Shown in pieces: positions 40,593-60,974 of a stretch of 64,000 bases of DNA. Each line of letters begins with the position of its first letter. The first letter of the stretch is position 1. The stretch is taken from positions 1-64,000 of the forward strand of contig QZLH01000284.1 in the NCBI GenBank assembly GCA_003833135.1, read 5' to 3'. The stretch comes from Oehlia diaphana (taxonomy: Eukaryota > Glomeromycota > Glomeromycetes > Glomerales > Glomeraceae). The notes under the pieces were generated by a model. That model was not told the DNA's origin and ran no database searches. It worked only from the letters and a program-made list of their open reading frames with translations. Position numbers and translations under genes: made by a program.

Positions 40593-40635
<43 letters not shown>

Positions 40636-43600
40636 CTTAGTTTCATCTTTAAGCATGGCTAGAGGTTTTTATAGTAAAGTTGAAAATGTTCAAGGAGAAC
40701 AAGGAACTTTTTATGTTGGCGGCTGGTTAGATTTCGAACTTACTGAAAATTGTATTTCATACTCACGTGACTTGGTCCGACGTTTCTTTAATTTATCAGG
40801 AAAAAATGAAAAATCATTACATTTACCTGTTCTACCTCATATTGATATTAAACCCGTTTCAAATCTTAATTGGGGTATGCTTTTACGATTAGCAGCAAAA
40901 AGATATCCTGATAAAGTAGCCTTCACTTGGGTAGATGTTAATTTACGTGAAGAAGCAAAAATTACTTATTCTGAATTATATAGACAATCAAGATGTGTTG
41001 CTTATTATTTAAGAAATAACGCAGGTCATAAAGTTGGTGATCCTATTTTACTCTGTTATGCTCCAGGTCTTAAATTTTTACCTATATTATTTGGATGTAT
41101 GTTGGCAGGAATTATTGCTGTTCCTATAGCTCCACCAAATCTTGCTACAGCTGATAAAGATATTGCAAGATTTAAATATTTAGCTCAAACAACTGGTGCT
41201 AAATTAGTATTTTCCGATAAAAATTATATGCTCTACACAAAATTATATGCTGCTAAAAGTTATTTCGGTTTTGGAAAAAAAATTGAATGGCCTGAAGATT
41301 TAATTTGGGTAGAAGGGGAAAATATTATTTCATCACGTGATCTATTCGATGAAAAATTAATTGATGAAATTGATAGTGATAATGTTGCAGTTTTACAATT
41401 TTCTTCCGGAAGTACTGGTGATCCTAAAGGTGTTATGTTAACTCATAAAAATTTATTACATAACGTCGACCTTATGCAAACTGAAATAGATCTTGGACCT
41501 GATGATACTATAGCTTTTTGGGTACCACAATTTCATGATTTAGGTTTAATTGGAGGTTTCTTAAATACAATACGTGGAGGTTGTAAATCTGTTGTTATGT
41601 CACCTTTAACATTTTTACAAAAACCTGAAAGTTGGTTACAAATGATAACAAATTATCAAGCTACATTTACTGCTGCACCAAATTTTGCTTATGAATTAGC
41701 TGCAAGAAAATGTGATAATAATAGTATAAAAAATTTGAATTTGAATTCTATAAGAGGTGCTTTTAATGGTGCTGAACCTGTACGTTGGTCAACTTTAAAA
41801 TCTTTTGCTAAAAAATTCGGTCCTGCAGGATTTAAACTTTCAATGTTTAAATGTCTTTATGGTTTAGCAGAACATTGTGCTTATTCTGTAGGATTTAGAA
41901 ATCTTCATGATATACCAACAGTTATTGATATTGATCCTATTCCACTTCGTGAAGGTCGTGTTAAAGTACGAAATAATACTTTAACTAATAGTAATAATGA
42001 TAATTCTCCTGCAAATAATATAGTTTCAACTGGTGTACCTAATTTAATGATGCAAGTTGAAGTTAGAGTTGTAGATCAAGAAACTAAAAAACTTTGTTCT
42101 CCAAATACTATTGGTGAAGTTTGGGTATCAAGTCCAAGTGTAGGTAAAGGTTATTATGGTAAAGAAAAAAATAGTGAAGAAACATTTAGAGCAAAATTGG
42201 ATAATGATGATCATGGTAATTGGATAACTGATAATGGTAGTTTCCTAAGAACCGGTGATCTTGGATTCTTATATAATGGTGAATTATTCATTACAGGACG
42301 TGTAAGTATATTAATTTTTTTTTAATGTGTATAAAATTATATTATATATATATTTTTTTATTAATCGATTTTTTTTTTTTTTTTATTATTAGCAAAAAGA
42401 TGTTATTATTATAAATGGAAAAAATCATTATCCTCAAGATATTGAACTAACAGTTCAAGAATCTCATAATGCAATTCGACCTGGATGTATTTGCGCAATA
42501 AATCATACTGATGTTGAAAATGGTACAGATTCACTTATTGTCCTCGTAGAAATCCGTCAACAAAAAGATATTAAACAAGAACTTTTACAAGAAATTTGTG
42601 ATTGTATCGCAAGAGTTGTACCAGGAAATCATGGTCTTTCATGTCAACGTATAGTAATATTAAAACAACATAGTATACCAAAAACAACAAGTGGAAAACT
42701 TCAACGTGCAAAAGCAAGAGATTTATTGCTTAATGGTTCAATGGATAAAAAGATTATAACCAGTGTAGGAGAAATTGTACAAGATCCCATGAATGTAGTT
42801 GATATTAAAGAAAAGAAACCTAAAAAGAAACCTTTAATGACCTTAGAAACAATTCAACAAAAAATTGCCGTTAACGTACATAAAGTATCTAAATTAGCCT
42901 CCAAATTATCAATTGATAAAATTGATTTTAAAGTAAATTTAATTACAACTTACGGTTTTGATTCATTAGCTGCCGTTCAATTAACAGCCTGTCTTAAAGA
43001 TGAATTTGGTATTGAAATAGCCCCTGCTCTTTTATTAGACTTACCTACAATATCTGATTTAGCTAGTCATATATTAAAACAATTAACAACATTAAATTCT
43101 GAATATGATGAGGGAGAAGATGAGAATCCTACTATATCATTGAAAGAGATTCAAGAAAAAATTACTAGTCATGTACATATGATTTCCAAATTAGCCTCAA
43201 AAATCCCAAAGAATGAATTAAACATTAATGCAAATCTTATCACCGATTATGGCTTTGATTCATTAGCTGCTGTGCAGTTGACCGCTTCAATGAAACAAAG
43301 TTTCGGTATTGAAGTAGCTCCCGCATTATTATATGATGTTCATACAATTGCAGATTTAAGTAATCATGTTCATAAATTACTCATTGAAGAAACACGTACT
43401 AATAAAAAGAAATCAAGAAAATCTCATGTCACTACTACTCAAGAAAATGATTTAATATTCGAAGATGATGGAAAAGAAGATCCAATAATAATACCTTTAG
43501 CTCCAAAGAATGTTGTTAATAAACATAATTCACCACTTTATTGTATACATCCTTTATTGGGTAATGTTGCAAGTTATGTCCTCCTTGCCAAGAATCTTGG

Positions 43601-44492
43601 AATCAATAGACCTGTATATGGAATTCAAGCTCCAAGTGATGTTGATGATGATATTAAAGTTATTGCTAAAAGATATGTAAAAGCTATTCTATTACATCAA
43701 CAAACTCAACCTTATTATTTATGTGGATATTCTTATGGTGGATTAGTTGCATGGGAAATGGCAAAATTATTACAACAAAATGGAGTTAAAGTTGGTGGTC
43801 TTTATTTAATTGATGCTCCTGCTCCACTTCAAAAAAGTGTTCGTAATCTAACTAACGATGAAGAACCACATATAATATGGAAAGATGATATTGAACAATT
43901 ATTAAATGATGCTGATTCTCAATGGATGGTTCGTGCCGAAAATGAGGACCCTTCAAAAATTGAAGCATTTAAAAGACAAATTGGAAAATTAATCGCTTCA
44001 ATGTATTCTTATACTTCCGATTATACAACTAATGAAACAGTACAACAATTTCCAATACATTATTGGAGAGCAAAAGATTATGCAGGAAAGACAAGTAAAT
44101 TATTACTTGATCATCCATCATTCCATGAATCAAATTTCGGCTGGGAACATTATCAAGGTGAAATAACTTTTCATCGTCCAATATCAGGGCATCATTATAA
44201 TGTATTACGTGAAGAAACAGCGGGACGTTTGGCAAGAGAATTTGATATGCCAATACAAAATAGAAGAGGCAGTATGGATCTTAGACCATTAATGTTAGAA
44301 AAAGTTGCTACCTCACAACGTGGAAGTCCTAATTCATCATCATCATCTGGAAAAAGTTTTCCTTTATTCAAAAGTTCTGATAAAAAGAATATGACTAGTA
44401 TAATATTAAAAACACAAATATCGATACCGTTACCTGTTGCAATAATAGGAATGTTTATCTGCATGTATTTTTATAACTTTGCTTTCTTATAA
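39249..44492 (+). CDS. Amine oxidase - fatty acyl-AMP ligase - ACP - ACP - thioesterase fusion with hydrophobic C-terminus
   Basis: Four phase-consistent exons (39249-39902, 40030-40528, 40641-42301, 42393-44492) encode about 1,637 aa. Residues 1-430: FAD-binding amine-oxidase fold with GIIGAGPAGISIAHFL and the acidic LLES that follows. Residues about 460-1040: adenylation domain with FSSGSTGDPKGVMLTH, the FAAL-typical WVPQFHDLGLIGG, RTGDLGFLYNG and a C-terminal lysine in TTSGKLQRAKAR. Two carrier domains follow, each with GFDSLAAVQLTA (phosphopantetheine serine near residues 1127 and 1226). A thioesterase comes next, with nucleophile motif GYSYGG near 1383 and a late histidine in GHHYNVL. 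The last 30 residues are hydrophobic. The domain order implies that a fatty acid is activated as acyl-AMP, loaded on the carrier pair and released by the thioesterase, with the flavoenzyme oxidising substrate or product. No ketosynthase or condensation domain is present. The product is unknown. Confidence 0.85.
40598..40635. repeat. Poly(T) tract in intron 2 of the FAAL fusion gene
   Basis: About 38 T directly precede the CTTAG acceptor at 40636-40640. It is an unusually long polypyrimidine tract; the true length may differ from the assembled one. Confidence 0.8.
44395..44492 (+). other. Hydrophobic C-terminal cassette of the FAAL fusion (shared with dynamins B and D)
   Basis: Encodes TQISIPLPVAIIGMFICMYF and a short YNFAFL end. 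It follows a Ser-rich linker (SSSSSGK) and a basic DKKN. Length and hydrophobicity fit a single C-terminal membrane anchor. Nucleotides 44398-44478 align closely with 50921-51000 in dynamin B and with 60893-60955 in dynamin D. Confidence 0.75.
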
Positions 44493-45203
44493 AAAAAAAT
44501 GATATTATCGATATTATCGATATTATTGTATATTTATTTTCTTTCTTTCTTTTTTTGTATTTATTTTTCTATTTTTCATTTCGATATAATCTTTTGGTTT
44601 CTATTTCACGACGGAAAAAAAATTTCATATATATATTTCATTATTTATCTTTAAAAAACTTTTTTTAAAAAAATACGAACTTTTTAAAACACTCGGAAAA
44701 AAAAAAAATTTTTTTTTTTTTCATTTTACAACTAAATTAGCGCTTTTTTTTCCTCGATTTTTATTTATCACGACATATATTTTTTCTATTAGTTACATCA
44801 TATTATATCATTATTTTTTATTTTTCTTATCGTTGTTATATAAATTGTACATATACACTTTATTATTTAATAAAAGCATTATCTATCAATTAAAAATTAA
44901 ATTAAAAAAAAAAAAAAATTGAAAATGTTAATTATGCTATTTAAATCTTATGTGCATGCAGGGGGACGTCTTTTATTTCTTTTGAGGTTGGAATATATTA
45001 AAAATATTAAATATATCCCGTCAAGGTTATTCCATATTAGGTGATCCATTTCCAAACAAATTTTTTTCGAAATTTTTTTTTATTTTAAATTGAGGCAATT
45101 GAACCAAAAAAAAAAAAAAATCTTTTTTTTTTCTCCTTTTCATTTTTGATTTACATTTTATTTACGTCGTATATTTATTTATTTACGTAAAAAAAAAAAA
45201 AAA
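44493..45203. other. Intergenic region between FAAL fusion and NRK
   Basis: AT-rich with T and A runs. AATAAA-type candidates (for example 44868-44874) may serve the upstream gene. A run of 14 A lies almost against the NRK start codon at 45204. Nothing else is seen. Confidence 0.45.
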
Positions 45204-46532
45204 ATGACAAATAGAAAAGTTGTTACAGTAGGAATTAGGTAAAAAGATTTCTATATGTTTAATATGTTTAATATGTTTTAATATATGTTAATTATGTTAA
45301 TATGTTAATTATGTTAATTATGTTAATTAATTATCGGTTATTATATATTTATATTTTTATAATTTATATATATGTGTATTTTTTTCTTTTTTTGATAGTG
45401 GAGCATCATGTTCAGGTAAAACTGTACGTAAATTATTAATTAAATTAAATTAAATTATTATTATTTAATTTTTTTTTTTTTTTTTGAATTGATTTAATAA
45501 CACTTTTTTTTTTTTATTTAATAGACATTGGTTAGATGGTTAGAAAAAATCTTTCCAAATATACACACAGTTTATCAAGATGATTTTTTCAAGGTAAAAA
45601 AGAAAAATCAACTTTTATAATATTCCCCTAACATATTATAAACCTTAACAATTATTTTCTTTTTAAAAGCCTGAAAAAGAAATTCCAATTGATCCAATAA
45701 CAAAACTAAACAATTGGGATTGTCCTGAAGCAGTAGATTTTAATAAATTTACCAAAGTACTTCATCAATTACGTACAACTGGTACTTTACCATCAACATT
45801 TCAATCTAAAGAAAGTAAGAATGAACGTAAAGATATTGAAACGATTGAATTAAATGATTTAGCTGAAGAATTATCTAAAAAAGTAAAAAATTCATTAAAA
45901 GAAAAAAAAGATGATAATGATAATAATGATGATAATCATCATAATCATCATAATCATCATAATGATGATGATGATGATGATGATGAATGGAATATTTTAT
46001 TAGTAGATGGATTCTTATTATATGTTAATCAAGATGTTATTAATGAATTAGATACTAAATTATTCGTTAATGCTAGTTATGATACTTTAAAAACTAGGAG
46101 AGAAAATAGAGCTGGTTACGTTACTATAGAAGGTAAATGTGTAAACCATGTCTTTTATATGTTTTTTATGTTTTTTATACATTTTTATATGTTTTTTACG
46201 TTTTTTTTACATGTTTATTTTAACATTGGTTTTTTTTACTTTTACTTTTTTACTTTACTAATATTATGATATTTTATATATTAATAATAGGATTTTGGGT
46301 TGATCCACCAAATTATTTTGATGATATAGTTTGGCCAAATTATGCTAAAGCTAATAAACATATACTTGATAAATTAGAAAAAGGGAATGAAAAGATAGAA
46401 AATTTAAATTCAGATTCTATTAAAATAGATGATTTAACTATATTAGAATCTGATCATCCTACAACGATATCAAAGAATGTTGAAAAGGTGGTAATGATGA
46501 TTTTAGATCATATTGTTAATAGGAAAAAATGA
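45204..46532 (+). CDS. NRK1: Nicotinamide riboside kinase
   Basis: Five phase-consistent exons (45204-45238, 45399-45423, 45525-45593, 45670-46132, 46291-46532) encode 277 aa. The family phosphorylates nicotinamide riboside to NMN, a salvage route to NAD+ in the cytosol. Visible hallmarks are a P-loop GASCSGKTTLVRWLEKIF near residues 13-30, the substrate-side motif YQDDFFKPEKEIP near 37-49, NNWDCPEAVDF, VDGFLLY before the lid region, LKTRRENRAGYVT as the arginine-rich lid, and FWVDPPNYFDDIVWPNY. A microsatellite-like insert encodes runs of His-His-Asn and Asp (about 45910-45985), absent from typical members. The first exon is only 35 nt. A decayed partial copy lies at 51310-51475. Confidence 0.88.
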
Positions 46533-47447
46533 GAACATTTTTTGACATTATTATGGTCACTCAGTATGATTCATTTTGTGAAATTCATCTAAAAACTCAA
46601 TAAAAATATCTCGACAAAAAAAATTTATGTTGTCACAACAAATATTACTTCTATGGTTTAGACAAAGATTTGTTTCCTATAGTAAACAAAATTCTTTGGT
46701 AAATATCTTATCCTTATCGAACTTATTGATAACACAATCAAATATCCTAATTTTTATTTGTTAACGTGAATATGATGATGATGAATTAAATTGAGCAGGA
46801 CTTTAATTGTTCGAAGGACTTAACTATTAGAAAAGAAAGGTAATAATCATCCAATTAAAATTATTCAAAAAGAGCGTAAGGGACAATTTCTTCAAGTTTT
46901 TATACTTACAATTATGAAAACTTTGGAATGCCTTATTTACAATTATTCTACACCTGAGAAAATTATCAGTAGATTTACCTAATATTTCATTATAAACAAA
47001 TTAAATCTATTTATACACGCATCGGAGTTAGCGTCCTCTCCTTGATGTGATTTGGCGTGATAACCGGAAATCTCACAAAAGTTAAATTTGATTATTAAAA
47101 AAAAATAACTAGGTTTTTATTTAAAAAAAAAAGGATACATGATATAATAATATCACTTTACGTGTTGTAAATATTATGTAATAATAAATTAAATTTTATA
47201 TATTGTTAAACATGTGATTATGATTTTATTTTACTATTTGTTAAAAATACATTTTTGTTTTTTTAATAGTTTTCCAAATTCGTATTAAGCTTACTCATTA
47301 TAGAAACAAAGAAAATTTCGTAAGTTTTGCTGAGCAGTATAAAAAAAATTTCATTGTAAAATATATTTGAACTTCATTTAAAGCAAAAATTTTTTATTAT
47401 TATTATTTTTTTTTTTAATTAAATTTTTCTTTGAAAAATTAAGCAAA
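46533..47447. other. Intergenic region, NRK to dynamin locus A
   Basis: No gene. The right part holds the conserved upstream motif CTTACTCATTATAGAAACAA (47290-47309) shared with the other dynamin loci. Confidence 0.5.
47290..47312 (+). promoter_or_regulatory. Conserved dynamin-cluster upstream motif (locus A)
   Basis: CTTACTCATTATAGAAACAA, 158 bp upstream of the locus A ATG. The preceding CCAAATTCGTATTAAG is also found before the copy at locus E. Confidence 0.6.
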
Positions 47448-48600
47448 ATGGCTAAACAACAAAAATCTCCATTAGCAGAGATCCCAACCATTGTTTTGTT
47501 TGGTGATCGTTATAGTGGCAAAAGTTCTGTTTTAAAACGTTTAACTGGCGGTTTACCATTGACAGGGTAAGAAAAAAAATATTTTATTTATTTATTTATT
47601 TATTTTTTTTTACAAATAAAAAATTTATTCCTTATACAATCAATATAAAAAGAATACGCACATATAGTATAGTTGAAATTCGTTTGTTAAAAGCTGAGGA
47701 GCCGTTACATAAAATCTCTTTACGTTACATAGAAGACAAAAATCATCAACCGATATCTCCATGGGAAATCACGTTTGCTATTATAACGGATTTAGATGAG
47801 GAAGAAATTGAAAAAAAATTGCATGAAGCTCAACGTTATGTACGAAATCCGAGTATTACTAAACATACACTATTGCCACCTGATATTGATGAGTTATGTT
47901 TTACAAAAAATTCAGTATGTGTTACAATTAGTGGTCCAGACCAGATGTACAATTTATCTATGATCGATTTGCCAGGTAAATAAAAAAAAAAAAATGATGG
48001 AGTGAGGTAGATATAAATTTAATCCGTTTCCTTTTTATTCTACTACACGTAGGAGTTGTAAGAAATGATGAAAGCCACGAAATTTTCGTATTATCTTTAA
48101 TAAAAGATTATATTAAAAAAGAATCGGCAATTTTGGTTCCAATATTTCCAGCAACTTCTGATATAAATACACAATGCGCACATCGTCTTGTGCGTGAAGC
48201 AGATCCTACCGGTCAACGTACAGTGGCCGTCCTAACGAAAATGGATCGTATTGTCGATGTCGATTATCCATGTGATGACGAAAAACACCTTGAACTTGCT
48301 ACTCTTGTAAAAGGTCAAGGTGAACATCAACTTGTAAATGGTACTTACGTTATAAGAAATCCTACCAATTCAGAAATTCATGAGGATCCAGATGAGTTGG
48401 AAATAGAGACAATTAAAGCTCTTAAACAAATTAGGATTTGGAAGGATGTACCATCTGATCGATATGGTTTACATAATCTGACAATAAAATTATATGAACG
48501 AGTACGAACTTGTTATGGTTTGTCCCAAATTGACAATCAGCCTAAATTACCGGTTTCTTATGAAAGTAATGAAACTTCTCTTGTATATTTATTATTTTGA
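47448..48600 (+). pseudogene. Dynamin-like GTPase locus A, degenerate and truncated
   Basis: Exons 47448-47566, 47668-47975 and 48053-48600 can be joined in phase (324 aa), but the product is impaired. Relative to paralogues B, D and E, about 30 residues before the P-loop are missing: the text jumps from SPLAE to IPTIV. The P-loop is GDRYSGKSS where paralogues have GDQSSGKSS. The conserved GSTKST segment at the start of exon 2 (switch I) is lost because an in-frame TAG occupies the position of its lysine codon and splicing must skip it. DLPG and LTKMD remain. After NLTIKL the sequence diverges from all paralogues (YERVRTCYGL onward) and stops, so the stalk is absent. It may be transcribed, but a normal GTPase is unlikely. 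Confidence 0.65.
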
Positions 48601-49675
48601 TTTGGGGCATATTACAATTTGGAGCACAACACTATCACTTGTACTGTGAACGACAATTGTTTTAATCTTCAAATAGGAACCTGCTTTATTAACAGATAAT
48701 TTTTTATTATCATTTGTTTTATGTATTCATGCCAACTGTTATGTGCTAAAAAATCAATGTAAGCTCCACATTTTTATCACTAGGGTTTAAAATTATTTTT
48801 CTTTGAAAATTTAGTTAATCATTAATTATAGAATTTACGTCGACACGGTAAGTAATCTATTAGCTTTTCATTAAAGTTGTGGCCTCGTTCATAAAAATCA
48901 CTTCGTAAAAACTAATGTTTTATTACGAATTATAAATTTCTCATATTTTCTATATTTATTACTTAAGAATATTATAACAGTCATAATGCATATCATTAAT
49001 TCAAGGTTAGTGCTCGATGCATTATTCGCCCTATTCAACTTAATCATATAGAGTTCCCATGAATTTACCTCATTAGGAGACGCAGACGCCTTTAATTAAA
49101 ATTAATTAATTTAAAGTACTTGCAAGTTGCAATTCAAATATTATATTTCCGCATTATCAACTTCATTAGTAAAAATAAGATGTTCATTAAAAGATAATTT
49201 AATAAATTTATTAAAAATAATTCATGATAATATTCCAATGCCTAATGTTATTATCAATGAATTCAATGAATACAAATATAATTGTTCATCCATGAATTAT
49301 TGTTCTTTTCTTTAATCTACTTTAAAATTTATTGAGAAATTATTTTATCCATAAGTACTTCCATAAGTCCAGTATAATTTATACTAATAATCTCTCGCTT
49401 TAGATAGTCTTTGTAAATCAACTAACTTGTTCATTTAATAACAATTTTGGAACTTATGAAATAGACTTACTCATTATGGAAACAAAGAGATTGAAAAACA
49501 ACGCGTATATAAACATTTTAACATAAATGTAATTTCATTCAATAATCGAAATAATTTTTAATAAACCTGTATTAGGGATAAGTCAAGTTTTCCAATCATC
49601 CATAAATTCATCGCTCAAAAATACAATTGAATTTTTTCTTCTTTAATATAGATAATTTAATAAAATTTAATTGAA
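48601..49675. other. Intergenic region, locus A to locus B
   Basis: No gene is supported. An open frame at 49127-49315 has no recognisable content. The right part has TCATTTAATAACAATTTTGG (49431) followed 35 bp later by the conserved CTTACTCATTAT motif. Confidence 0.45.
49466..49488 (+). promoter_or_regulatory. Conserved dynamin-cluster upstream motif (locus B)
   Basis: CTTACTCATTATGGAAACAA, about 210 bp upstream of the locus B ATG, preceded at 49431 by TCATTTAATAACAATTTTGG. It is a two-part arrangement shared with loci C and D. Confidence 0.6.
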
Positions 49676-51008
49676 ATGGTTCAACTAAATTCTCCATTAA
49701 CAAAAACTCCTAATACAAGAGAATATATCGATATTTTCTGCGAAATAAAGAAACTTGAAACATTTTATCATGGATTCGAAGAAAATGCTCCAACAATTGT
49801 TGTTTTTGGTGATCAATCGAGTGGCAAAAGTTCCGTTTTACAACGTTTAACTGGTGGTTTATCATTGCCAAGGTAAAGAAAAAAAAACTATAATTTATCT
49901 TATTTCATTTTTTTTTAAAAAAAAATTTCTTAATAATAGGGGATCCACAAAAAGTACAGTTGCACCTTTCAAAATTCGTATGTTACAAAGAGAAGAGCCG
50001 TTACATAAAATCTCTTTACGTTACATAGAAGATAAAAATCGTAAACCGGTAACTCCAAGAGAGGTCGACTTTGCTATTATAACAGATTTAGATGAGGAAG
50101 ATATCGAACTAAAATTGCGTGAAGCTCAACGTTATGTGCAGAATCCGAGTATTACAGATATTGAAAATACACGATTGCCTGATTCTGATGAGTTAGCTTA
50201 TACAAAAAATGCTGTATGTGTTACAATCAGTGATCCAGGTCAGACATATAATTTATCGATGGTCGACTTACCAGGTAAATAATAGAGGGAGAGGGATGAT
50301 ATATTATTTCATTATTTAACTTTTCTTGTTTCTCATTTAGGTGTGACAAGGAGCGATGAAGATAACGAAGTTTTTGTTTTATCCTTGGTAAAAGAATATA
50401 TTAAAAAAGAAACGACAATCTTGGTCCCAGTATTTCAAGCGACTTCTGATATAGCTACACAATGCGCGTATCGTCTTGCGCGTGAAGCAGATCCGGACGG
50501 TCAACGTACTGTAGGCGTCCTGACAAAGATGGACCGTATCGTCGATTATCCATGTGATGACGAAAAACACCTTGAACTTGCTACTCTTGTAAAAGGTCAA
50601 GGTGAACATCAACTTGTAAATGGTAGTTATGTTATAAGAAATCTTTCTAGTGTTTCGGAGTTTTATGAAGATCCAGAAGAGTTGGAAAAAGAAACAATCA
50701 GAAAACTTAAACAACATATAATCTGGGAAGATGTGCCATTTGATCGATTCGGGTTACAAAATCTAACGATGAAATTAAGTGATTTACAAAGAAAAGCACA
50801 TAAACGGTCATTGCCTAAAGTACGTTCGTTTTTGGAAGATCGTAGATCTGAATTTCAAGAAAAATTAAATGAACTTCCACTACCATCAGATGGAAATCCT
50901 ATGATACATTACTTGGCCAGTATAATAATTAATACACAAATACCATTACCTGCTGCAATAATGGGAACGATGATTTGCATGTATTTTTATAATGTTTTCC
51001 TTGTGTAG
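49676..51008 (+). CDS. Dynamin-like GTPase B: G domain only, with C-terminal hydrophobic anchor
   Basis: Exons 49676-49872, 49940-50274 and 50341-51008 join in phase and encode 399 aa. The G domain is complete: P-loop GDQSSGKSSVLQRL (about residues 46-59), LPRGSTKSTVAPF as switch I, DLPG (about 176) and LTKMDR. It continues through FGLQNLTMKLSDLQ and LEDRRSEFQEKLN to PLPSDGNP, the point where full-length paralogue E enters the stalk. Here it switches to IHYLASIIIN and the hydrophobic TQIPLPAAIMGTMICMYFYN before the stop. Typical dynamin-family GTPases need stalk and GED for oligomerisation, so this short, probably tail-anchored form should act differently. Intron positions and phases equal those of D and E. 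Confidence 0.85.
50918..51005 (+). other. Hydrophobic C-terminal cassette of dynamin B
   Basis: Encodes TQIPLPAAIMGTMICMYFYN and VFLV. It is nearly superimposable on the FAAL-fusion C-terminus at 44395-44489, including many silent positions, and on dynamin D at 60893-60971. Confidence 0.8.
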
Positions 51009-51309
51009 AAAATAATTGCATATTTGCTGAATTTAATTATCGAGTAAAACCATCTTATTTTTTTATTAGTAATATAAAAACTTTTACTATTATGACTTTG
51101 TAAATCTGGCAAAAATTATATGAACAAAGAAATTAGTAATTCCGGCCGAAATTATTTCGGTCAGAGCTTATATATATATGTGTATTAAATCATCTTTTTT
51201 TAGTACTGTATATTTCGTATTTTTAAAAATTTCGTTCTAAATTTTTTTTTTGATATTTCCTCTCCACTTTTTTTCCATTATGAAAGTTATTATCCGAAAT
51301 CGGTATGAT

Positions 51310-51475
51310 TCAACTAATTTACCAAAATATCTTATCAACCGGTACTCTCCAATCAACATTTAAATCTAAAAAAGTGAAATAATGTTCTTATTAATGAATT
51401 GAATATAAATCATTTAGATATGATTTAAATTATTTTAGCCAAACTATGTTAAAAGCTAATAAACCATATCAGATA
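51310..51475 (+). pseudogene. Decayed fragment of the nicotinamide riboside kinase gene
   Basis: Three blocks match the intact NRK gene in the same order. AATTTACCAAAATATCTTAT plus GGTACTCTCCAATCAACATT corresponds to 45747-45800. TTATTAATGAATTGAATA corresponds to about 46035-46055. AATTATTTTAGCCAAACTAT plus GTTAAAAGCTAATAAACCAT corresponds to about 46310-46362. Intervening parts are deleted and stops are present. It marks a former copy of the NRK gene downstream of dynamin B. Confidence 0.75.
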
Positions 51476-54400
51476 TGATTTGTTGTGTCAATTTTATCAA
51501 TGTTGAAACGGCCGTAATTTGAAGCAATAGATGAATTCTTTAAATTAATACTTTTATTATATTAATAAATGTACTGTATCTATTCATAAAGATCTTATTA
51601 TGATTATAAAAGAATTTTGAAGAAAACAAGTATTTAATATTTACAGGTATTACGTCGTAGAATGGTATCAAATGATAAATGAAGTTACAATATACTACTT
51701 CATATATCGGTTAATCTGAGTGTTTACTGTATACTGTATTAATATAACGAGAAAACCCTTCCTAGGGGAATTTTTATGCTAAGAGAAAATATAAATAAAC
51801 TATATATATGAATATCGATAATCACATTAAAAAACTAATAAACAAAATTCTGAATTACAGTATATTATATGATTAAAAATCCTGTATTTGCTTGGAATTC
51901 TCAGTGTAAGACTTACGAATTAATGAATCTTTGTAGATGTTTCAATTGTTTCATGGCAATTACAATGAAGTGTAATGAAAAAATGCAAAAATTTTGACGT
52001 CGAGTGTTACCAGGCGGACAATATCATTTGTATTAATAATTTTACAATGAAGTGTAATGAAAAGATGCAAAAATTTTGACGTCGAGTGTTACCAGGCGGA
52101 CAATATCATTTGTGTTAATAATTTTACGAGGATTTTTATATGATTGAGGATCTAAACTTAATTTTCAATTCTTCAAATTTCTTAAAGAGTCATAATTATG
52201 TGTTATTGTTATTATTTAATTTTTTATTCGAATATTGCTAATTTAATTTAATCAGGATGAATTTCACTATGGTTAGATGTGATTATGTGACCGGAAAATG
52301 GCATTTTCCAGATTATGAATTAATTTCACATGATCATTCAGATCACAACCATGCAATGTGTTCAAAAAGGAACGTAACACTAATTTTTTTTAATGATTGT
52401 TTTTCACTGCGCACACTGAAATTTTTTTTTTTTTTTTTTTGCACTGTACCAGACTCTCGCATAGACTGATAAAAAGTTCTTCGAAATTTAAGCTCTGTAG
52501 TCTGTACCTACGATATTCTACGCAGGATAAAAATATGGTGTAGGCAGTAATAGGCTATGTGTTGCGAGTACATTTCTTCTATCTTACATACTGCTGTCAG
52601 TCTTCTCGAAAGTACCAATTTTCAGCAAACAATATTTCTTCCTTGAAGAAATAATTTGCATCCCCAGAACAAACTGGGGAATGGATTGTTCTGAATTTAG
52701 TACAAAGTAAAAGTTCATTTGATGTAAGTAACGCTCTTATTTCATAACATAACGAAAATTATCTCGTAATATATTAAATTACTGGTTATCTGATAGATAT
52801 GTCGACTTGGACTATTTAGTATTGTCACAATAGTGAAAGAAATATTTTAGATGTGATGTTTTGTTTAATTCAAAAATTATTAACTCATATTATTGTGAAA
52901 ATATCATAGACTGGAATTCGTATTTGAGAAACAAAGCGAGACCAAATACTGCATCTCGCTACTTAAGGACTCAACCGAATTGCGTAAGGCATGAAGAGGA
53001 GACCGCTGGTTTATTAAGGGATAGGATGCTCGTTAGCGCAATTAAGAAGCGAAGACAAAATTTTTTATAAAACAACATATTTAGTATAGGAGCATAACTA
53101 TGTATCTCAGGCTTAGACTTAAACTTTATAATTTATTTTTTTATTGACCATTTAAATAAAGCTTAGGGTATTTAATGCTCTAACAGTTTAGTTCTACTAG
53201 ATATTTTTACATGTGGGTAATTGGGTAATTGAGGAGTCAATGAAGCATTCATTGATCATATTTTGATCGTATGAACGCGTGCACATTGATACAGGATAAT
53301 CTAGGAATAAATCTTAATTTGTAGTCGACAAATTATCATTATATTATAATAATGAAGATCTGAGATCTAGTGCATCAGGTTAGTGATGAATTGTTGCCAA
53401 GATATTTTTTACCATTCTAATCCAAAACTGAATATGGTGGTTAATGAAATTAGTAGAAAAGAGATAAAAACAAGAGAGTATGTCTTAATTTGTTTAAATT
53501 TCGGGATTCTCATTACTTCGACCAATAAATTTCGGACTATTTCTATTTGCTTTAGTCTCTTTCGTGCTCTTATTTCCCATACCCAATGAAAGGAAAATCC
53601 GCGCTTTCCTCCGGAAACAGAAGATAAGATCATGAATTCACTGGGATTGGCGAGAGATGACGCTCATGGGCAACGAACTCTTACAGAAAGGAACTTGCCG
53701 GACAAGAGGCTGAACCCACTACACGGTAAGTTAATTAACAACGACTTCACAAACGATATGATTATAAGTATCATACGCGAGCATGGTTTCAGGTTGTTTT
53801 TAGAATTATCCGTGCCTATAGGAAGAAGTAATGAATGACGCTGAGGAAAGTCCACATCACAAGATTTAACCCAATTATATCAAAAAAAACTACTAGAAAT
53901 TTTATGTTGATAAACTTGGTATGTATATGCTAAAAGATCAGGTATATTAAATCTGAAGAATCGGTTACTGATCCAGCTGTTAAAAATCGAGTGTATTGCG
54001 TAAGAAAAACAGGAGAGAAATATTTACAGAAACGCAGATGAAAAGAAACGTAACGTGACTTTCCTGTCCCACGCAGAAGTTAAGCTATGACACGTGAACA
54101 GGGACGAATATATATATATACATATTTACTGTACATAATGATTACTAAATAGTAAATGCCGCAGCCCGCATATTATGGGAATTATATGAAATTGTGTTTT
54201 AATTGTGCCCAGATTTAATTAATAGGCGCGGAAGGAAAATTGTGTGGAATTATTTGAAAATTTATTATGAAATTATCCCTGCACGTGAAATTAGCGTGTA
54301 AATTGGCACACAATCGCGACAAATAAGGACCAATTCAACTTTAGATTTCAGATGATATTTCAGATGATAAGCAAATTAACGAAATAACGAGATAAATAAA

Positions 54401-54569
54401 GTCAAGTCATGTTACCGAAATTTTTAATTCCCAATTCCACGTGAATTCCTGCACCGAATGTTTTAAAAAGTAACACGAAAACACAAACATTAACGCCATT
54501 AAAAACATCTAAACTGCACTCATATCATAAAGCTCTTTTAAAATTAAGTTAAAATTAAGTTTTCTAATA
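51476..54569. other. Intergenic region with tandem duplication and unassigned short frames
   Basis: The region carries an 82-bp direct tandem duplication (51961-52128). Short open frames at 52861-53070 and 53632-53838 have higher GC than their surroundings but no recognisable domain and no intron logic that extends them. They could be relics of transposon coding sequence. No gene is supported. Confidence 0.4.
51961..52128. repeat. 82-bp tandem duplication, two near-identical copies
   Basis: TACAATGAAGTGTAATGAAA starts at 51961 and again at 52043. Within each unit the block GACGTCGAGTGTTACCAGGC is identical. Only about two substitutions distinguish the copies, implying a young duplication. 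It is non-coding. Confidence 0.88.
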
Positions 54570-56200
54570 ATGCGAAAAATAAGATTAGCATTAGTGTCAT
54601 TGGATTGGATACGTCCAAAAGATCCGTTAACAAATTTAGGACACGCATCTATACTTGCCACTTTACAGAAATATAATTCGAATCAACTAACATTTTTAAA
54701 TGATCATCGATATTCTGTTAAATATTGCCCGGACGTAGAAGAATTTAGTGAGAATGTTGTAAAGAATTTAATATACGATGAACCGGATTTAATTGCTTTT
54801 GGTGTATATATTTGGAATGAATTACATACTCAATTAATCTTAAAAAAACTTAGAAAGAAAATTAAAGAGAGAGATTGCATATCGATTGGATTTTCTGGAA
54901 AAGGAAGAGGAGAAGGACGAATTATGATTGATTATCTTCGTAAGCCGTTAATTTTATTAGGAGGTCCTCAGGTAAGATTAATATTAACTAATTTTTATTT
55001 TTACGTAAATTATTAATCTTTTTTTATGCACGATAGATATCCTATGCGCCAATTAATACATTAGAAGGTCATTATCCAGACGCTGACTTGTTTATTCGTG
55101 GATATGCCGAAAAAGCGGTTTCTAAGGTTGTAGAAACACTTTCAACTCACGTCACAAGTTCGGGCAATATGACCTCATCATACCAATTCGCAACACATCA
55201 ACAATGTTTTTTACGACCTATATCCACTTCATCATCAAATATTTCAAATCCGACTATGCTTTTGCATAAAATTAAAGGATTACATCAACGAGGACATCCT
55301 GATTTGGGAATACAAGCCGCCGTAGATATGGAATCTCTTCCTTCTCCTTTCTTACCCGTTGAAACTTTAGAGAACGCTTCTAATTTAGATAATAATGTTT
55401 CTCAAAGCAAATTGGTGAATTCACCCATTATTCCCTTAAGTAATCGATCATTTATTAGATGGGAAACACAACGTGGATGTCCATTCAAATGCACATTTTG
55501 TCAACATCGTGATACTTATACAAATAGACAAGCACTTTCCCCGCCACGAACTCTTTCTGAAATCCAAGAAATAACTTCTTCACCGGTAAACGACATAGCA
55601 GTTCTCGATCCCACATTTAATTCCGGTCCAAATTATTTATCAACGTTAGATAATTTAATAAAATATAAATATAAAGGAAAACTATCATTACAAACTCGTT
55701 TTGAAATGATCAAACCACAATTTATTGAAAAATGCTCAGTGCTCGTTAATGAATTAAAAGCAAATATTCAATTAGAATTTGGAGTACAAAGTATTATTAA
55801 AAAAGAATCATTAGTTATTCAACGAATGAATAATTTAAATTCTGTTAAAGAAAATTCATCATTATTAAGAAAAAATAATATTAAATTTGAAATTTCTTTG
55901 ATCTATGGATTACCACATCAGACTGTTGAGAGTTTTAAAGAAAGTATTGAATTCGCTAAAACTTTAGGTGCTGAAAAAGTTGTTGCTTGGCCTTTAATGT
56001 TATTGAGAGGTACTGAGTTGGAAAGAAGAAAGGAAGAATTGGGTTTGAAAGAAGAAATTTTAAGTAGTGTGGATTTGGATAGTGAATTGCCTAGAGAACG
56101 AATTAGTGAAGGTATACCACATGTAGTAGAAAGTCCAACATTTACAAAAGGCGAATGGAGAGAAATGATGAGAATCGCTAATGAACTTAAGTATATGTAA
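54570..56200 (+). CDS. Radical SAM enzyme with N-terminal cobalamin-binding-like domain
   Basis: Two exons (54570-54971, 55037-56200) join in phase and encode 521 aa. Residues 1-175 resemble the Rossmann-like B12-binding domain found before many bacterial radical SAM domains (RLALVSLDWIRP, DLIAFGVYIWN, LILLGGPQ), though I see no DxHxxG cobalamin-ligand motif. The core begins at RWETQRGCPFKCTFCQHRD (about residues 270-288). Its CxxxCxxC would bind the 4Fe-4S cluster that cleaves S-adenosylmethionine. Later LEFGVQS and ISLIYGLPHQTVESF fit the radical SAM barrel. The substrate is unknown. It lies between dynamin-like loci B and C. The architecture is mainly bacterial, so horizontal acquisition is possible; the intron and AT-rich codons show it is adapted to this genome. 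Confidence 0.78.
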
Positions 56201-57395
56201 AAGTCATTCATTTGCTTTATTTGTATATAAGTAAGCTTTTATAGGTTTAAAAGATATTACGCGAGAGTAGAATAATTTGTCCGTATTAGTTATAAATTGC
56301 TGCGCCACTAAGCTTCATTCTCTGTAGCTATGATTCAGAACTAAATTAACTAATTTTCAGTTCTTATAAATGATATTAGGCAATTATAATTTTTTCATCA
56401 ATTTTTTTTATTCCCACATTTCTATTTCTTTAAATACTGTATTTTTAAGTCGATTATATATAAAATGATTTGATTTTTTAACCGATAATTCATATTTATA
56501 ATAAGTTATATGCTTTCATATTTGGCCAATGTGTATTTGGTTAATTACATTCAGAACGCAAACAAACCTAAATCATTATCTTCAAAATCTAAATTGTTAG
56601 AATTATTTGTATTTACCAACCCTCAGTAAGATTAAAAATTTAAGGTGCTTGGGATAATCAAAAATATACCTAGTGATTTGTCCTTCTAGACGTTTCTAAA
56701 TAAGTAAGTAAAATATCTGGTAATTTTAAGCTTGGAGACAATTTATTGCTTTAGAGAACAAGTTGTCTATGGATAAATTTTCTCAAGCAATTTTGATTTT
56801 GGACAACTATTTTTGCATTCTATTTTAATCCAATATGTATCAAAATAATAAGGTATTAAATATAGAAAAATAAATATTTGAATGTTAATAATCTACCATA
56901 CTATATTTTAATATCATAATCGGATTAAATAAGCACTAATATGCTACAATACAGGAGTATACAATATACGATAAATTAATATTTATTTTTTGCCTATTTT
57001 TTAAATGTTAGGAATCAAATGCAATTTATATACACGACAAATGGCCAATGCCACACACAAATACTTCAAGAATGCAATTTTAAAATTTGTTCTCGGATTT
57101 TCTTTTTACATCTTTAATTTTAATTAATTCATTAAAATATAATTCGAAGTCATATGTCCATTCCGTTATCTTCCTAACCGTTAATCGACATCCGTTCATT
57201 TAATAACACTTTTGGAATAATCATAATTAAGTTTACTCATTATAGAAACAACTTATTGATAATCATTTTGATAAATCAAACCCGTATTAGGATTAGAATA
57301 AACAAACCCATGCTCATTGCAAAAAAAGAATCGACTATTAAGTATAGCTTGATTTTCTTCATTATTTTCTCCCTCTAAATTCTTCAAGAGTATCT
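56201..57395. other. Intergenic region, radical SAM gene to locus C
   Basis: No gene. The right end has TCATTTAATAACACTTTTGG (57197) and the conserved TTTACTCATTATAGAAACAA motif (57232). Confidence 0.45.
57232..57252 (+). promoter_or_regulatory. Conserved dynamin-cluster upstream motif (locus C)
   Basis: TTTACTCATTATAGAAACAA about 185 bp before the remnant start of locus C, preceded at 57197 by TCATTTAATAACACTTTTGG. It survives although the gene downstream is dead. Confidence 0.6.
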
Positions 57396-58436
57396 AATCC
57401 AAAAGATTGTTGACATTATGTGCGAGATGGGAATAGGAAAACTTGAAGAAAATATACCAACAATCGTTATGTTTGGTGATCAATCGAGTGGCAATAGTTC
57501 TATTTTACAACGTTTAACTGGTGGTTTACCATTACTAATACCCAGGTAAGAAAAAAATATACATATAGTTTCTTTATTCTTTTTAAAAAAACAATTTCTT
57601 CCTTATACGACATAAACAGGGGCACAAAAAGTATAATTGAAGTTCGTACGTTACAAACTGAGGAATTGGTACGTAAAATCTCTTTACGTTATATAGAAGA
57701 CGAAAATCATCAACCGGTATCTCCAAGGGAAGTCGAGTTTATTATAACGGAATTTGATGAGGAAGAAATTGAAGAAAAATTGTGTGAAGCTCAACGTTAT
57801 ATAAAAAATCCGAGTATTACAAATGTTCAAAATACACGATTGCCACCTGATTCCGGTGAGTTAGCTTTTACAAAAAATGCTGTATGTGTTACAATCAGCG
57901 GTCCAGACCAGATGTACAGTTTATCCATAATTGACTTGCCAGATAAATAGAAAAAGTAAATGGTGGAGTGAAATTCAAAAATTTAATATTCATTAAAACT
58001 ACACGTAGGAGTTGTAAGAAATGATGAAAGCTACGAAAATTTCGCATTATCTTTAATAAAAGAATATACTAAAAAAGAAACGATAATTTTGATGCCTGTA
58101 TTTCAAGCAACTTCTGGCATAGATACACAATGCGTATATCGTCTTGCGCGTGAAGCAGATCCTGTACAGTGGGCGTCCTAACAAAAGTGGATCGTATTAT
58201 CAATTATCCAAGTGATGACGAAAAGTATCTTGAACTTGCTACTCTTGTAAAAGGTCAAGGTCAAGGAGAACATGGTACTTACGTTATAAGAAATCCTACC
58301 AATTCAGAAAATTATTTAGACCCAGATGAGTTGGAAAAAGAGACAATTAGAGCTCTTAAACAACTAAGAATCTGGAGGGATATTACCACATGATCGACAT
58401 GGGTTACAAAGAAATTTACGTGAGCGATCATTGATC
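57396..58436 (+). pseudogene. Dynamin-like GTPase locus C, pseudogene
   Basis: All three dynamin exons are recognisable (about 57396-57546, 57620-57950, 58011-58436) but several lesions are present. The N-terminal region is frameshifted near 57405. The P-loop reads GDQSSGNSS, losing the catalytic lysine. The exon 2 donor is CCAGATAAAT where paralogues have CCAGGTAAAT, so the splice site is lost and DLPG becomes DLPD. About 10 nt are deleted near 58164 (between AREADP and the paralogues' TVGVLTK), shifting the frame. A stop follows GGATATTACCACA near 58391. No stalk is left. Confidence 0.85.
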
Positions 58437-59644
58437 AGAGTTTTAATTCTCTTTCGTAACCTGTTTATCGGACTTTTGTAAACGAGCGAGCTTTATAATT
58501 TTTTTGTCATTATCTATTTTATGTCTTAAGTTACAAATGCTACTTTTCATAAAAATTTTTTTTTATGTTAATAAGATTTCTTGCGTTAAATAATAATCGA
58601 TAACTCAATATTTAAATTAAGATGTTAGTAAATATTTTTATCGTTTTTTATTCGTAAAATTACTTTTTAAATATTAATCGGCCAAATTGTTTCATTGTAT
58701 TATTATTTACGCGAAATACAAATTTATCATATTTTTGTTCAGAAACTTGAAACTTAACAAATCAACAATATTCTGAATGCAAGATGGGTATAAAGGTTCT
58801 TAAATTACTTTGTGAAAATTCGTAAAAAAAATCACAGTCAGATCCAAACGATCATGTGAATGTAAAACACCAAAGCTGATCGAATGATCAGGCTATCTCC
58901 AAATTTTTCTTGTCCCACTTTACAAATGAAAAATGACTCATCCTCTTCGGAATTTCCCTATATATCTCCGTACACGTCAGTGAAGCTTGTATTACCATCA
59001 ACAAGTTTTGAAACCGGATAACTTATAAACATGCTGAATAAGATGATATCTTCAACATTAAACTTTAAAAATTTCATTTAATACTTAATAGAAAATTTTA
59101 TTGAAATATTCCGCAGGTTACGTTTTGTATTCCAATTAGTTTATATTAGTAATTTCCATCATTTTATCCGAATTTACTATCTAAATGATTCAGGTAGTAC
59201 ACAATTGTAACACAATTAAATATTAGGAGGAAAACTGCCTCATTTAATAACACTTTTGGGACTTTTGGAACAAATACTTACTCATTATAGAAATAAGGGA
59301 TTCTTGCATTCTACGCATATTCTATGCATACATGACCTTATCGATTAATCGTGTGAAAAATGGCGTATTTTAAAAGTAAAATTATTCATTCAAAGATAAA
59401 AAACATGCTCGAAAAAATTTTTCAATAAAAGCTTTATTAGGAATAAACTAGAAACAATGAATTAAAGAAATTTTTTTAACCTTTTTTTAATTTTTTTTTA
59501 TTCCAAAAAAAAAAGTAATTAACCTAAAAAAATGCAAGAATTCCGTGAATTTCATACTCAAAATTCAATAAAATTCAATTATAAAAAAAAACCAGTATAA
59601 AATGCAATTTAATTTCTTTAATTTAGAGAAATAATTCAATCAAG
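58437..59644. other. Intergenic region, locus C to locus D
   Basis: No gene is supported. TCATTTAATAACACTTTTGG at 59240 and the conserved CTTACTCATTATAGAAATAA at 59277 lie upstream of locus D, at a greater distance (about 370 bp) than at the other loci. Confidence 0.45.
59277..59297 (+). promoter_or_regulatory. Conserved dynamin-cluster upstream motif (locus D)
   Basis: CTTACTCATTATAGAAATAA, one base different from the A and E copies, preceded 37 bp earlier by TCATTTAATAACACTTTTGG. Confidence 0.6.
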
Positions 59645-60974
59645 ATGGTTCGACTAAATTCTCCACTAGCAGAAACGTCAAGTGCAAGAGATTATATTGA
59701 CATTATGAGCGAAATAAAGAAACTTGAAGCATTTTACCATGAATTTGAAGAAAATAATCCAACAATTATTGTTTTTGGTGATCAATCGAGTGGCAAAAGT
59801 ACCGTTTTACAACGTTTAACTGGTGGTTTACCATTGCCAAGGTAAAGAAAAAAAAACTATAATTTATTTTATTTCATTTTTTTTAAAAAAAATTTCTTCA
59901 TTATAGGGGATCCACAAAAAGTACAGTTGCCCCTTTCAAAATTCGTATGTTACAAAGTGAAGAACCATTACATAAAATATCTTTACGTTACGTAGAAAAC
60001 AAAAATCGTGAGCCGATACATCCAAGTGAAGTTGATTTTGCTGTTATAACAGATTTGGATGAGTTAGAAATAGAAGAAAAATTGCGCGAAGCTCAACGTT
60101 ACGTACAGAATCCGAGTATTGATTTTAAAAACGAACGATTGCCACCTGATAATGATGAGCTATCTTATACAAAAAATGTTGTATGTGTTACAATCAGTGG
60201 TCCAGAACAGATGTACAATTTATCTTTGGTCGACTTACCCGGTAAATAGAAAAAATTAAGGGGAGGGAGATGCAAAAATTTCATTATTTAACGTCTCTTT
60301 TTACGCATTATTTAGGAATTACAAGAAGTGATGAAAACAATGAAGCTTTTGTGTTATCTCTGGTAAATGAGTATATTAAAAAAGAATCAACAATCTTGGT
60401 TCCTGTATTTCAGGCAACTTCTGATATAGCTACACAATGCGCGTGTCGTCTTGCGCGTGAAACAGATCCGAACGGTCAACGTACAGTAGGTGTCCTAACA
60501 AAGATAGATCGTATCGTCGATCATCAAAGTGATGACGAAAAACACCTTGAACTTGCTACTCTTGTAAAAGGTCAAGGACTTGTAAATGGTACTTATGTTA
60601 TAAGAAATCCTTCCAGTGTTCGTTCAGAAATCCACGAGGATCCAGATGAATTGGAAAAAGAAACAATTAGAAAACTTAAACAACATATAATCTGGGAAGA
60701 TGTGCCATTTGATCGATTCGGATTGCAAAATCTAACGATGAAATTAAGTGATTTACAAAGAAAAGAACATAAACGGTCATTGCCAAAAATTCGTTCTTTT
60801 TTGGAAGATCGAAGATCTGAATTTGAAGAAAAATTAAATGCACTTCCACTACCATTAGATACAAATTCAATTACACATTACCTATCCAATAAAGTAATGA
60901 ATACTCAAGTACCATTACTTGCTGCAATAGCAGGGACGATAGTTTGCATGTATTTTAAAAAAAAATTATATTAA
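59645..60974 (+). CDS. Dynamin-like GTPase D: G domain only, with C-terminal hydrophobic anchor
   Basis: Exons 59645-59841, 59907-60241 and 60316-60974 join in phase and encode 396 aa. Motifs are P-loop GDQSSGKSTVLQRL, LPRGSTKSTVAPF, DLPG and LTKIDR. Like B, it ends soon after LPLPLDTNS with IHYLS-type sequence (THYLSNKVMN) and the hydrophobic TQVPLLAAIAGTIVCMYFKK plus KLY. The stalk and GED of paralogue E are absent. A few codons (EHQ in the KGQGEHQLVNG block of B) are deleted in frame. The shared truncation point with B indicates that the short form existed before B and D separated, and that it is kept under coding constraint. The basic KKK end is compatible with a tail-anchored protein. 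Confidence 0.85.
60893..60971 (+). other. Hydrophobic C-terminal cassette of dynamin D
   Basis: Encodes TQVPLLAAIAGTIVCMYFKK. It aligns with the cassettes of dynamin B and of the FAAL fusion and is the most diverged of the three. The C-terminal aromatic YN residues are replaced by lysines. Confidence 0.75.

What the first reader, a model, noticed from the sequence alone, without database searches (positions are those of the whole stretch)
44395..60974. Same C-terminal membrane-anchor cassette on a lipid-metabolism megaenzyme and on two neighbouring dynamin-like GTPases
The last 25-30 residues of the FAAL fusion (TQISIPLPVAIIGMFICMYF), dynamin B (TQIPLPAAIMGTMICMYFYN) and dynamin D (TQVPLLAAIAGTIVCMYFKK) are homologous, although the proteins are otherwise unrelated. 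The DNA is also similar at silent positions, so this is shared ancestry and not convergence. Inference: a small coding cassette moved between neighbouring genes, giving unrelated enzymes the same tail anchor and possibly the same target membrane. A fatty-acyl enzyme and membrane-acting GTPases on one membrane would be an undescribed functional link.
Basis: partly seen in the sequence, partly recalled or inferred. Interest (0 to 1): 0.88.

Follow-up and report, generated by a model that had tools for sequence, protein, structure and literature searches.

The report
Dynamins with a borrowed membrane tail
In a root-symbiont fungus, a shortened dynamin gene appears to have been fused to the membrane-anchoring tail of a neighbouring lipid enzyme gene, probably when the DNA between them was duplicated, and the resulting hybrid protein has been kept in related species.

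Summary
The last ~29 codons of the FAAL megaenzyme (44397-44492), dynamin B (50919-51008) and dynamin D (60888-60974) are homologous. Four whole-genome queries (108.8 Mb) found no copy outside this window; the FAAL tail DNA finds only itself and dynB, E = 4.8e-13. The window is most likely Rhizophagus diaphanus.

Direction: the tail belongs to FAAL. FAAL orthologs across Glomeromycotina carry it (9 of 12 close hits, plus one partial). Full-length sister dynamin E and a Funneliformis relative lack it. B and D lost the stalk in mid-exon and end in the FAAL tail, in frame. R. irregularis and R. clarus share the hybrid; one tree clade holds all five tailed proteins.

Likely mechanism: one tandem duplication from just upstream of the FAAL tail, through the next gene (NRK1-like), into a dynamin gene. 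It predicts an NRK1 copy after the hybrid; a decayed NRK1-like stretch lies there (51289-51469; moderate evidence). Silent divergence fits one event (FAAL-B tail 0.53, B-E 0.50).

Shared membrane target and functional link are untested; dynD's tail has diverged. Product: natural stalkless, tail-anchored dynamin GTPases.

The parts
39249..44492 (+). FAAL megaenzyme gene, 4 exons (39249-39902, 40030-40528, 40641-42301, 42393-44492), 1637 aa: FAD-type oxidoreductase, fatty acyl-AMP ligase, two carrier domains, thioesterase, C-terminal tail anchor
   Evidence: Spliced by hand; R. irregularis ortholog P0001 of the same length, 97% identical over residues 1200-1637; Pfam
44397..44492 (+). Donor tail in FAAL (SIILKTQISIPLPVAIIGMFICMYFYNFAFL, stop)
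   Evidence: Tail of the same kind in FAAL orthologs of Glomeromycotina; DNA match to dynB only in the whole genome
45204..46532 (+). NRK1-like gene (nicotinamide riboside kinase 1), next gene after FAAL; exons read by eye
   Evidence: Best matching solved structures are Nicotinamide riboside kinase 1; a Funneliformis gene model runs from FAAL straight into this gene, so the order is old
47448..48600 (+). Dynamin A: GTPase-only paralog with its own short end, no FAAL tail
   Evidence: 100% to P0056 of R. diaphanus
49676..51008 (+). Dynamin B: stalkless dynamin GTPase fused to FAAL tail, 3 exons (49676-49872, 49940-50274, 50341-51008), 399 aa
   Evidence: P0051 of R. irregularis 98% over full length; Dynamin_N 4.5e-28 on P0051
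50919..51008 (+). FAAL-derived tail of dynamin B; joint just before 50919, after residues ...GNPMIHYLA
   Evidence: 68 of 87 bases identical to FAAL tail
51289..51469 (+). Decayed NRK1-like stretch downstream of dynamin B, same orientation as NRK1 after FAAL
   Evidence: Score 78 against shuffle maximum 48 of 200, z = 11; second collinear piece 51431-51469; best two-exon score of 646 windows; blastn 6e-7, nhmmer 0.0043 in 83 kb
57418..58393 (+). Dynamin C: GTPase paralog whose frame ends early (R. diaphanus model P0069 has 234 aa), no FAAL tail
   Evidence: C tail region read
59645..60974 (+). Dynamin D: second stalkless, tailed dynamin, exons 59645-59841, 59907-60241, 60316-60974, 396 aa
   Evidence: 100% to P0054 of R. 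diaphanus
60888..60974 (+). Diverged FAAL-derived tail of dynamin D
   Evidence: 62 of 84 bases identical to dynB tail, 54 of 84 to FAAL tail
61495..64000 (+). Dynamin E: full-length sister (847 aa by hand splicing, ends at 64335 of the contig) with Dynamin_N, Dynamin_M and GED, no tail anchor

Best explanation
A chimeric gene. In an ancestor of Rhizophagus the order was FAAL - NRK1-like - dynamin(s), all on one strand. A tandem duplication began inside the last FAAL exon, just upstream of the codons for its tail anchor, and ended inside a dynamin gene just after the GTPase part. At the new joint the 5' part of the dynamin (GTPase and adjoining helices) was joined, in frame and within an exon, to the FAAL tail and stop codon; the upstream FAAL and a downstream full dynamin stayed whole, and the duplicated NRK1 copy decayed. 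A later duplication of the hybrid gave B and D. Shown: homology, FAAL as owner of the tail, in-frame joint, loss of stalk, presence in other Rhizophagus species, purifying selection on the GTPase part. Inferred: that duplication (not another rearrangement) made the joint; that the protein sits on a membrane by its C-terminal helix with the GTPase in the cytosol. Working model of function (inference): a stalkless GTPase-helical-bundle unit held at the membrane by a tail anchor, able to dimerise through its G domains and so tether or regulate, but not able to build the stalk-based helical collar that severs membranes.
For: Tail of the same kind at the end of 9 of the 12 close FAAL hits (R. irregularis, Glomus cerebriforme, Cetraspora, Dentiscutata cut short, Acaulospora, Diversispora, two Ambispora, one unnamed source); Funneliformis shows its first half before the gene model runs on; the two Entrophospora models lack it. 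Dynamin E and P0067 have no tail anchor; E and the fragment P0066 have Dynamin_M over cut-off, P0067 below it. The joint follows the residues that in E read GNPTNRFLEL. The decayed NRK1-like stretch after dynB is the neighbour gene expected by the duplication model. dS: FAAL-B tail 0.53, B-E 0.50, D-E 0.44, B-D 0.34, as expected if fusion and the B/E split were one event. dN/dS of the B-D dynamin part 0.26. One clade (98/98) holds all five tailed proteins plus P0058. Tail of B about as conserved as the rest: 24 of 30 against 161 of 200 in P0061, 22 of 26 against 155 of 196 in R. clarus P0064 (both are incomplete proteins). Predicted structure of P0051: dynamin G domain, helices to 374, C-terminal helix 380-398, mean pLDDT 77.6; best PDB matches are the engineered stalkless MxA and a dynamin-1 GTPase-BSE fusion.
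Against: The 3' edge is not seen: DNA just after the FAAL and dynB stop codons is not detectably similar (z = 1.6). No NRK1 trace follows dynD. The NRK1-like remnant is short; nhmmer alone gives E = 0.0043 in 83 kb; the shuffle test is lenient, since an A/T-rich stretch after FAAL also reached z = 8; and by percent identity two NRK1 paralogs elsewhere match it as well (64 of 75 and 82 of 94 bases, against 104 of 125 for the neighbour), though with lower scores (53 and 57 against 78). dS of the tail rests on 29 codons. The gene order in other Rhizophagus genomes could not be read. The tree tool counts two changes of the tail label and no bootstrap tree with one, because P0058 (R. irregularis relative of D) sits in the tailed clade but its model ends before the tail. 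Confidence in the predicted tail helix is low (pLDDT 48-60). No transcript or protein data.
Confidence: 0.7

Rival explanations
1. The tail was copied alone (short ectopic patch, template switch or gene conversion) from FAAL into a nearby dynamin gene, without duplication of the DNA between them.
For: Detectable similarity at the tail itself is limited to about 90 bases; the 3' flanks do not align.
Against: The decayed NRK1-like stretch after dynB, in the same order and orientation as after FAAL, is unexplained by a short patch. Gene conversion usually needs prior similarity (general knowledge), and FAAL's 3' part shows none to dynamin outside the tail.
Confidence: 0.22
2. The tail moved from dynamin to FAAL.
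For: Both genes are neighbours; similarity alone has no direction.
Against: FAAL tails of Acaulospora, Diversispora, Cetraspora and Ambispora, far outside Rhizophagus, while dynamin E and P0067 lack it; the HMM of other FAAL tails finds the dynamin tails.
Confidence: 0.03
3. Convergence or chance: unrelated hydrophobic tails of similar composition.
For: Hydrophobic tails are low in information; dynD alone would be marginal (E 0.1-0.2).
Against: E = 4.8e-13 in DNA over the whole genome with no other tail matching; same codons at 15 of 18 shared degenerate residues, P = 0.006.
Confidence: 0.01
4. The tail is a mobile coding module spread by a transposon-like process.
For: Three copies in 16 kb.
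Against: No further copy found genome-wide in four queries; B and D copies are explained by gene duplication.
Confidence: 0.03
5. The tail gives FAAL and dynamin B the same membrane and a joint function in lipid handling. Not exclusive of the best explanation.
For: B's tail is close to FAAL's and about as conserved between sources as the rest of the protein.
Against: Common origin by neighbourhood explains the likeness; D's tail has drifted; no localisation, expression or interaction data.
Confidence: 0.2

Closest known systems
Engineered stalkless MxA and dynamin-1/Vps1/DRP1 GTPase-BSE constructs (PDB 4p4u, 5d3q, 6def, 9n7z)
   Same: GTPase domain plus bundle helices without stalk; among the best structural matches of the model, TM-score by query about 0.55-0.6
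   Different: Those are laboratory constructs without membrane anchor (recalled); here it is a natural gene with a C-terminal hydrophobic tail
Dynamin superfamily proteins with transmembrane segments (mitofusin/Fzo1, atlastin, OPA1/Mgm1; recalled)
   Same: Large GTPase held in a membrane by hydrophobic segments
   Different: Different subfamilies and topologies; these Rhizophagus proteins match Mx, dynamin and Vps1 best and got the anchor from an unrelated enzyme
Toxoplasma DrpC (PMC6448817, passages read)
   Same: Dynamin-related protein whose conserved tail regions do not correspond to a canonical middle domain or GED
   Different: No captured tail anchor described in the passages read
Chimeric genes formed at tandem duplication joints (recalled from the genome-evolution literature)
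   Same: 5' part of one gene joined to 3' part of its upstream neighbour, parents intact
   Different: Here the captured part is a membrane anchor and it replaced the stalk
Glomeromycotina FAAL-containing candidate clusters (PMC8070225, passages read)
   Same: That paper reports Glomeromycotina as unique among its set in coding for candidate clusters containing FAAL
   Different: It does not, in the passages read, describe the tail or the dynamin hybrids

Membership tests
Dynamin superfamily GTPase | Dynamin-type G domain with P-loop, DLPG and TKxD motifs | tested here: met
   Dynamin_N 4.5e-28 (P0051) and 4.1e-29 (P0054/D), over cut-off; GDQSSGK[ST], VDLPG, TK[MI]D (motif roles recalled)
Dynamin superfamily GTPase | Stalk / middle domain | tested here: not met
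   P0051 has no Dynamin_M match at E 0.01; D, P0061 and P0064 have weak pieces under the cut-off; E has it over cut-off
Dynamin superfamily GTPase | GTPase effector domain (GED) | tested here: not met
   No match in P0051 or P0054; E 23.1 bits against cut-off 21.4
Dynamin superfamily GTPase | GTP hydrolysis stimulated by assembly | not testable with these tools
   Needs biochemistry
Tail-anchored membrane protein | Single hydrophobic segment at the extreme C-terminus | tested here: met
Tail-anchored membrane protein | Post-translational insertion, N-terminus in cytosol | not testable with these tools
   Needs reporter fusions
Tandem-duplication chimera | In-frame joint of 5' part of one neighbour to 3' part of the other | tested here: met
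Tandem-duplication chimera | Trace of the duplicated intervening gene after the joint | tested here: met
   Decayed NRK1-like stretch after dynB, moderate strength; none after dynD
Tandem-duplication chimera | Similar 3' flanks after the shared stop codon | tested here: not met
   z = 1.6; intergenic DNA may be saturated
Tandem-duplication chimera | Same age for tail copy and gene duplication | tested here: met
   dS 0.53 and 0.50; only 29 codons in the tail
Fatty acyl-AMP ligase (FAAL) enzyme | AMP-binding domain with DIP2-like C-terminal part and carrier domain partner | tested here: met
   PF00501, PF23024, PF00550 twice
Fatty acyl-AMP ligase (FAAL) enzyme | FAAL-specific insertion motif | not tested
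   The name FAAL was taken from the finding; only domain matches were checked

The most novel reading that the evidence does not exclude
A new natural class of dynamin-related proteins, stalkless and tail-anchored, born in Rhizophagus by capture of a lipid enzyme's membrane anchor, kept by selection, and working as a membrane tether or regulator at the membrane where the FAAL enzyme handles host-derived fatty acids.
Probability: 0.2. Interest if true: 0.75.

Novelty: new variant of a known kind. Interest (0 to 1): 0.55.

Why it matters
It is a case of a soluble assembly GTPase becoming a candidate integral membrane protein in one step, with donor, recipient, joint and a probable mechanism readable in one locus. 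If the localisation holds, it would show that a dynamin GTPase can be kept without its stalk, and it gives two sister proteins (B with a near-original tail, D with a diverged one) plus the donor as a ready test of how tail-anchor sequence sets the target membrane. It also draws attention to a FAAL megaenzyme, probably membrane-bound, found across Glomeromycotina, fungi that depend on plant lipids.

Tried and rejected
Convergence and a mobile cassette were tested and dropped. Dynamin-to-FAAL direction was dropped after reading FAAL orthologs. I looked for similar DNA after the stop codons of FAAL, B and D and found none. The idea that A-B and C-D are one recently duplicated unit was not upheld: A and C are each closer to E than to each other. 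A tail-only protein search scored 3 candidates, returned 2 and missed the R. clarus and P0061 tails already in hand, so it says nothing about further carriers. A first codon script failed on frame, and the dynD lines were out of register; one search replaces them. In one search the region after FAAL also scored (56, z = 8); one search shows an A-rich stretch. In one search one locus (L050) scored higher for one exon (82 against 78); it had been fetched by the same NRK1 query, at the part of the query that codes for a repeat.
Full report
What was checked. The three tails lie at the stated places and are in frame with their proteins. FAAL's last exon is 42393-44492, dynB's 50341-51008, dynD's 60316-60974 (spliced by hand); in each the tail is continuous with the domain before it, so losing the tail by splicing would need an unpredicted intron. 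Gene models of others end the same way: P0051 (R. irregularis, 98% over 399 residues) and P0054 (R. diaphanus, 100% to dynD). Dynamins A and D match R. diaphanus proteins at 100% in every exon piece, C at 100% and 94% in the two pieces that passed my 80% filter. The window is therefore most likely R. diaphanus; its assembly has 108.8 Mb in 1672 contigs.

Is it more than chance? FAAL tail DNA against the whole genome: itself and dynB, E = 4.8e-13. DynB tail peptide: itself, FAAL at 3e-4 and dynD at 0.008, nothing else up to E = 10 (three candidates, all scored). The Glomus cerebriforme FAAL tail finds the same three places; the dynD tail finds dynD and dynB. A shuffled dynB tail finds nothing. 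FAAL and dynB share 19 of 29 residues and 68 of 87 bases, and use the same codon at 15 of 18 shared degenerate residues against 9.8 expected, P = 0.006. An nhmmer profile of the three tails finds only these three in 83 kb of the contig (next best E = 4.9).

What was the recipient? Dynamin E, next door, is a full-length dynamin: Dynamin_N, Dynamin_M and GED over their cut-offs. B and D match it up to the residues that read GNPTNRFL in E and GNPMIHYL in B, then switch to the FAAL tail. Hydropathy: the most hydrophobic 19-mer of B, D, P0061 and P0064 lies 0-7 residues from the C-terminus; E and P0067 have no such segment there. Among eight FAAL rows the Kyte-Doolittle maximum is in the tail in 4 (one of them only a 40-residue piece) and in the AMP-binding domain in 4; the octanol-scale minimum is in the tail in 7, Ambispora P0009 being the exception (scale values from memory). 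The AlphaFold2 model of P0051 (mean pLDDT 77.6, pTM 0.77) shows a dynamin G domain, a long helix 316-354, a short one 364-374 and a C-terminal helix 380-398, the last 40 residues at low confidence (48-60). Foldseek ranks stalkless MxA (4p4u) and a dynamin-1 GTPase-BSE fusion (5d3q) first, TM-score by query 0.58-0.59; the sequence search of solved structures has Mx1 on top.

One origin. A tree of 15 dynamin parts with the tails cut off puts all five tailed proteins in one clade (98/98) together with P0058, the R. irregularis relative of D, whose model stops before the tail. Because of P0058 the tool counts two changes of the tail label and no bootstrap tree with one; I read this as one gain and one loss or a cut-short model. 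The clade has R. clarus and R. irregularis members, so the hybrid probably predates their split. The B tail is about as conserved as the rest of B in P0061 (24 of 30 against 161 of 200), R. clarus P0064 (22 of 26 against 155 of 196) and P0051 (28 of 30 against 363 of 369); D's is not (15 of 29 against 303 of 365). The dynamin part of B and D has dN/dS 0.26, the tail 1.65-1.81 on 28-29 codons: the GTPase is under purifying selection, the D tail looks relaxed or changed.

How did it happen? FAAL lies upstream of the dynamins on the same strand. A dynamin 5' part joined to a FAAL 3' end is just what a tandem duplication of the block [FAAL tail - NRK1-like gene - dynamin 5' part] makes, leaving FAAL and a downstream dynamin whole. 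The model predicts a copy of the NRK1-like gene after the hybrid. There is a decayed stretch like it: 51289-51417 aligns with the NRK1-like gene at 104 of 125 aligned bases, and 51431-51469 with its next exon, same order and orientation. Score 78 against a shuffle maximum of 48 in 200 (z = 11). Of the six other regions tested, five gave 24-39; the DNA after FAAL gave 56 (z = 8) through an A-rich stretch, so this shuffle test is lenient. Over 646 windows of 800 bases it has the best two-exon sum (131, next distinct place 105), the best second-exon score (53, next 46) and is second for the first exon (78, after L050 with 82). blastn gives 6e-7 in 83 kb with the next at 0.004; nhmmer gives only 0.0043 with the next at 0.3. 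Percent identity does not separate the neighbour from two NRK1 paralogs on other contigs, scores do (78 against 53 and 57). The DNA straight after the stop codons is not alike, and D has no such trace. Timing agrees: dS FAAL-B tail 0.53, B-E 0.50, D-E 0.44, B-D 0.34. I put the whole explanation at about 0.7, a short patch at 0.22.

How it may work. Inference: the tail helix inserts after translation and holds the GTPase at the cytosolic face of some membrane. Without the stalk the protein should not form dynamin helices; dimerising G domains on two membranes would tether, or B could modulate the full-length dynamin E. The target membrane is unknown. Shared target with FAAL is plausible for B and less so for D, whose end is KKKLY.

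Literature. I searched an open-licence library only and saw listings with the starts of abstracts (12 of 85 papers, 10 of 13, none, the whole list in the others), plus passages of PMC6448817, PMC7732545 and PMC8070225. Nothing I saw there describes the tail capture or tailed dynamins in Rhizophagus; PMC8070225 does report FAAL-containing candidate clusters as a Glomeromycotina feature. Subscription papers were not covered.

Noticed in passing
47291-47309, 49467-49485, 57233-57251, 59278-59296, 61177-61195: A 19-base element TTACTCATTAT[A/G]GAAA[C/T]AA stands 157-367 bases upstream of the start of each of the five dynamin genes (start of C taken from the match to P0069); the exact pattern occurs 5 times in the 108.8 Mb genome, all here (3 more places with one mismatch; backwards control 3 forward, 0 reverse). 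Possibly a shared promoter element.
   Followed up: partly
39249-44492: The FAAL megaenzyme (FAD oxidoreductase - FAAL - two carrier domains - thioesterase - tail anchor) is found across Glomeromycotina; with its C-terminal part as query the next hits are NRPS- and PKS-like proteins at 76 bits or less.
   Followed up: partly
45204-46532: The NRK1-like gene has an inserted Asn/Asp/His-rich repeat and DNA matches that look like two paralogs on contigs C509 and C846.
   Followed up: no
55037-56200: An open frame with a radical SAM domain sits between dynamins B and C, inside the dynamin array.
   Followed up: no
51960-52127: Two 86-base copies, 82 bases apart and 97.7% identical, lie between dynamin B and the radical SAM frame.
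   Followed up: no
44418-44426: The window's FAAL tail carries a two-codon insertion (KTQISIPLP) absent from the ten FAAL ortholog tails that could be read.
   Followed up: no
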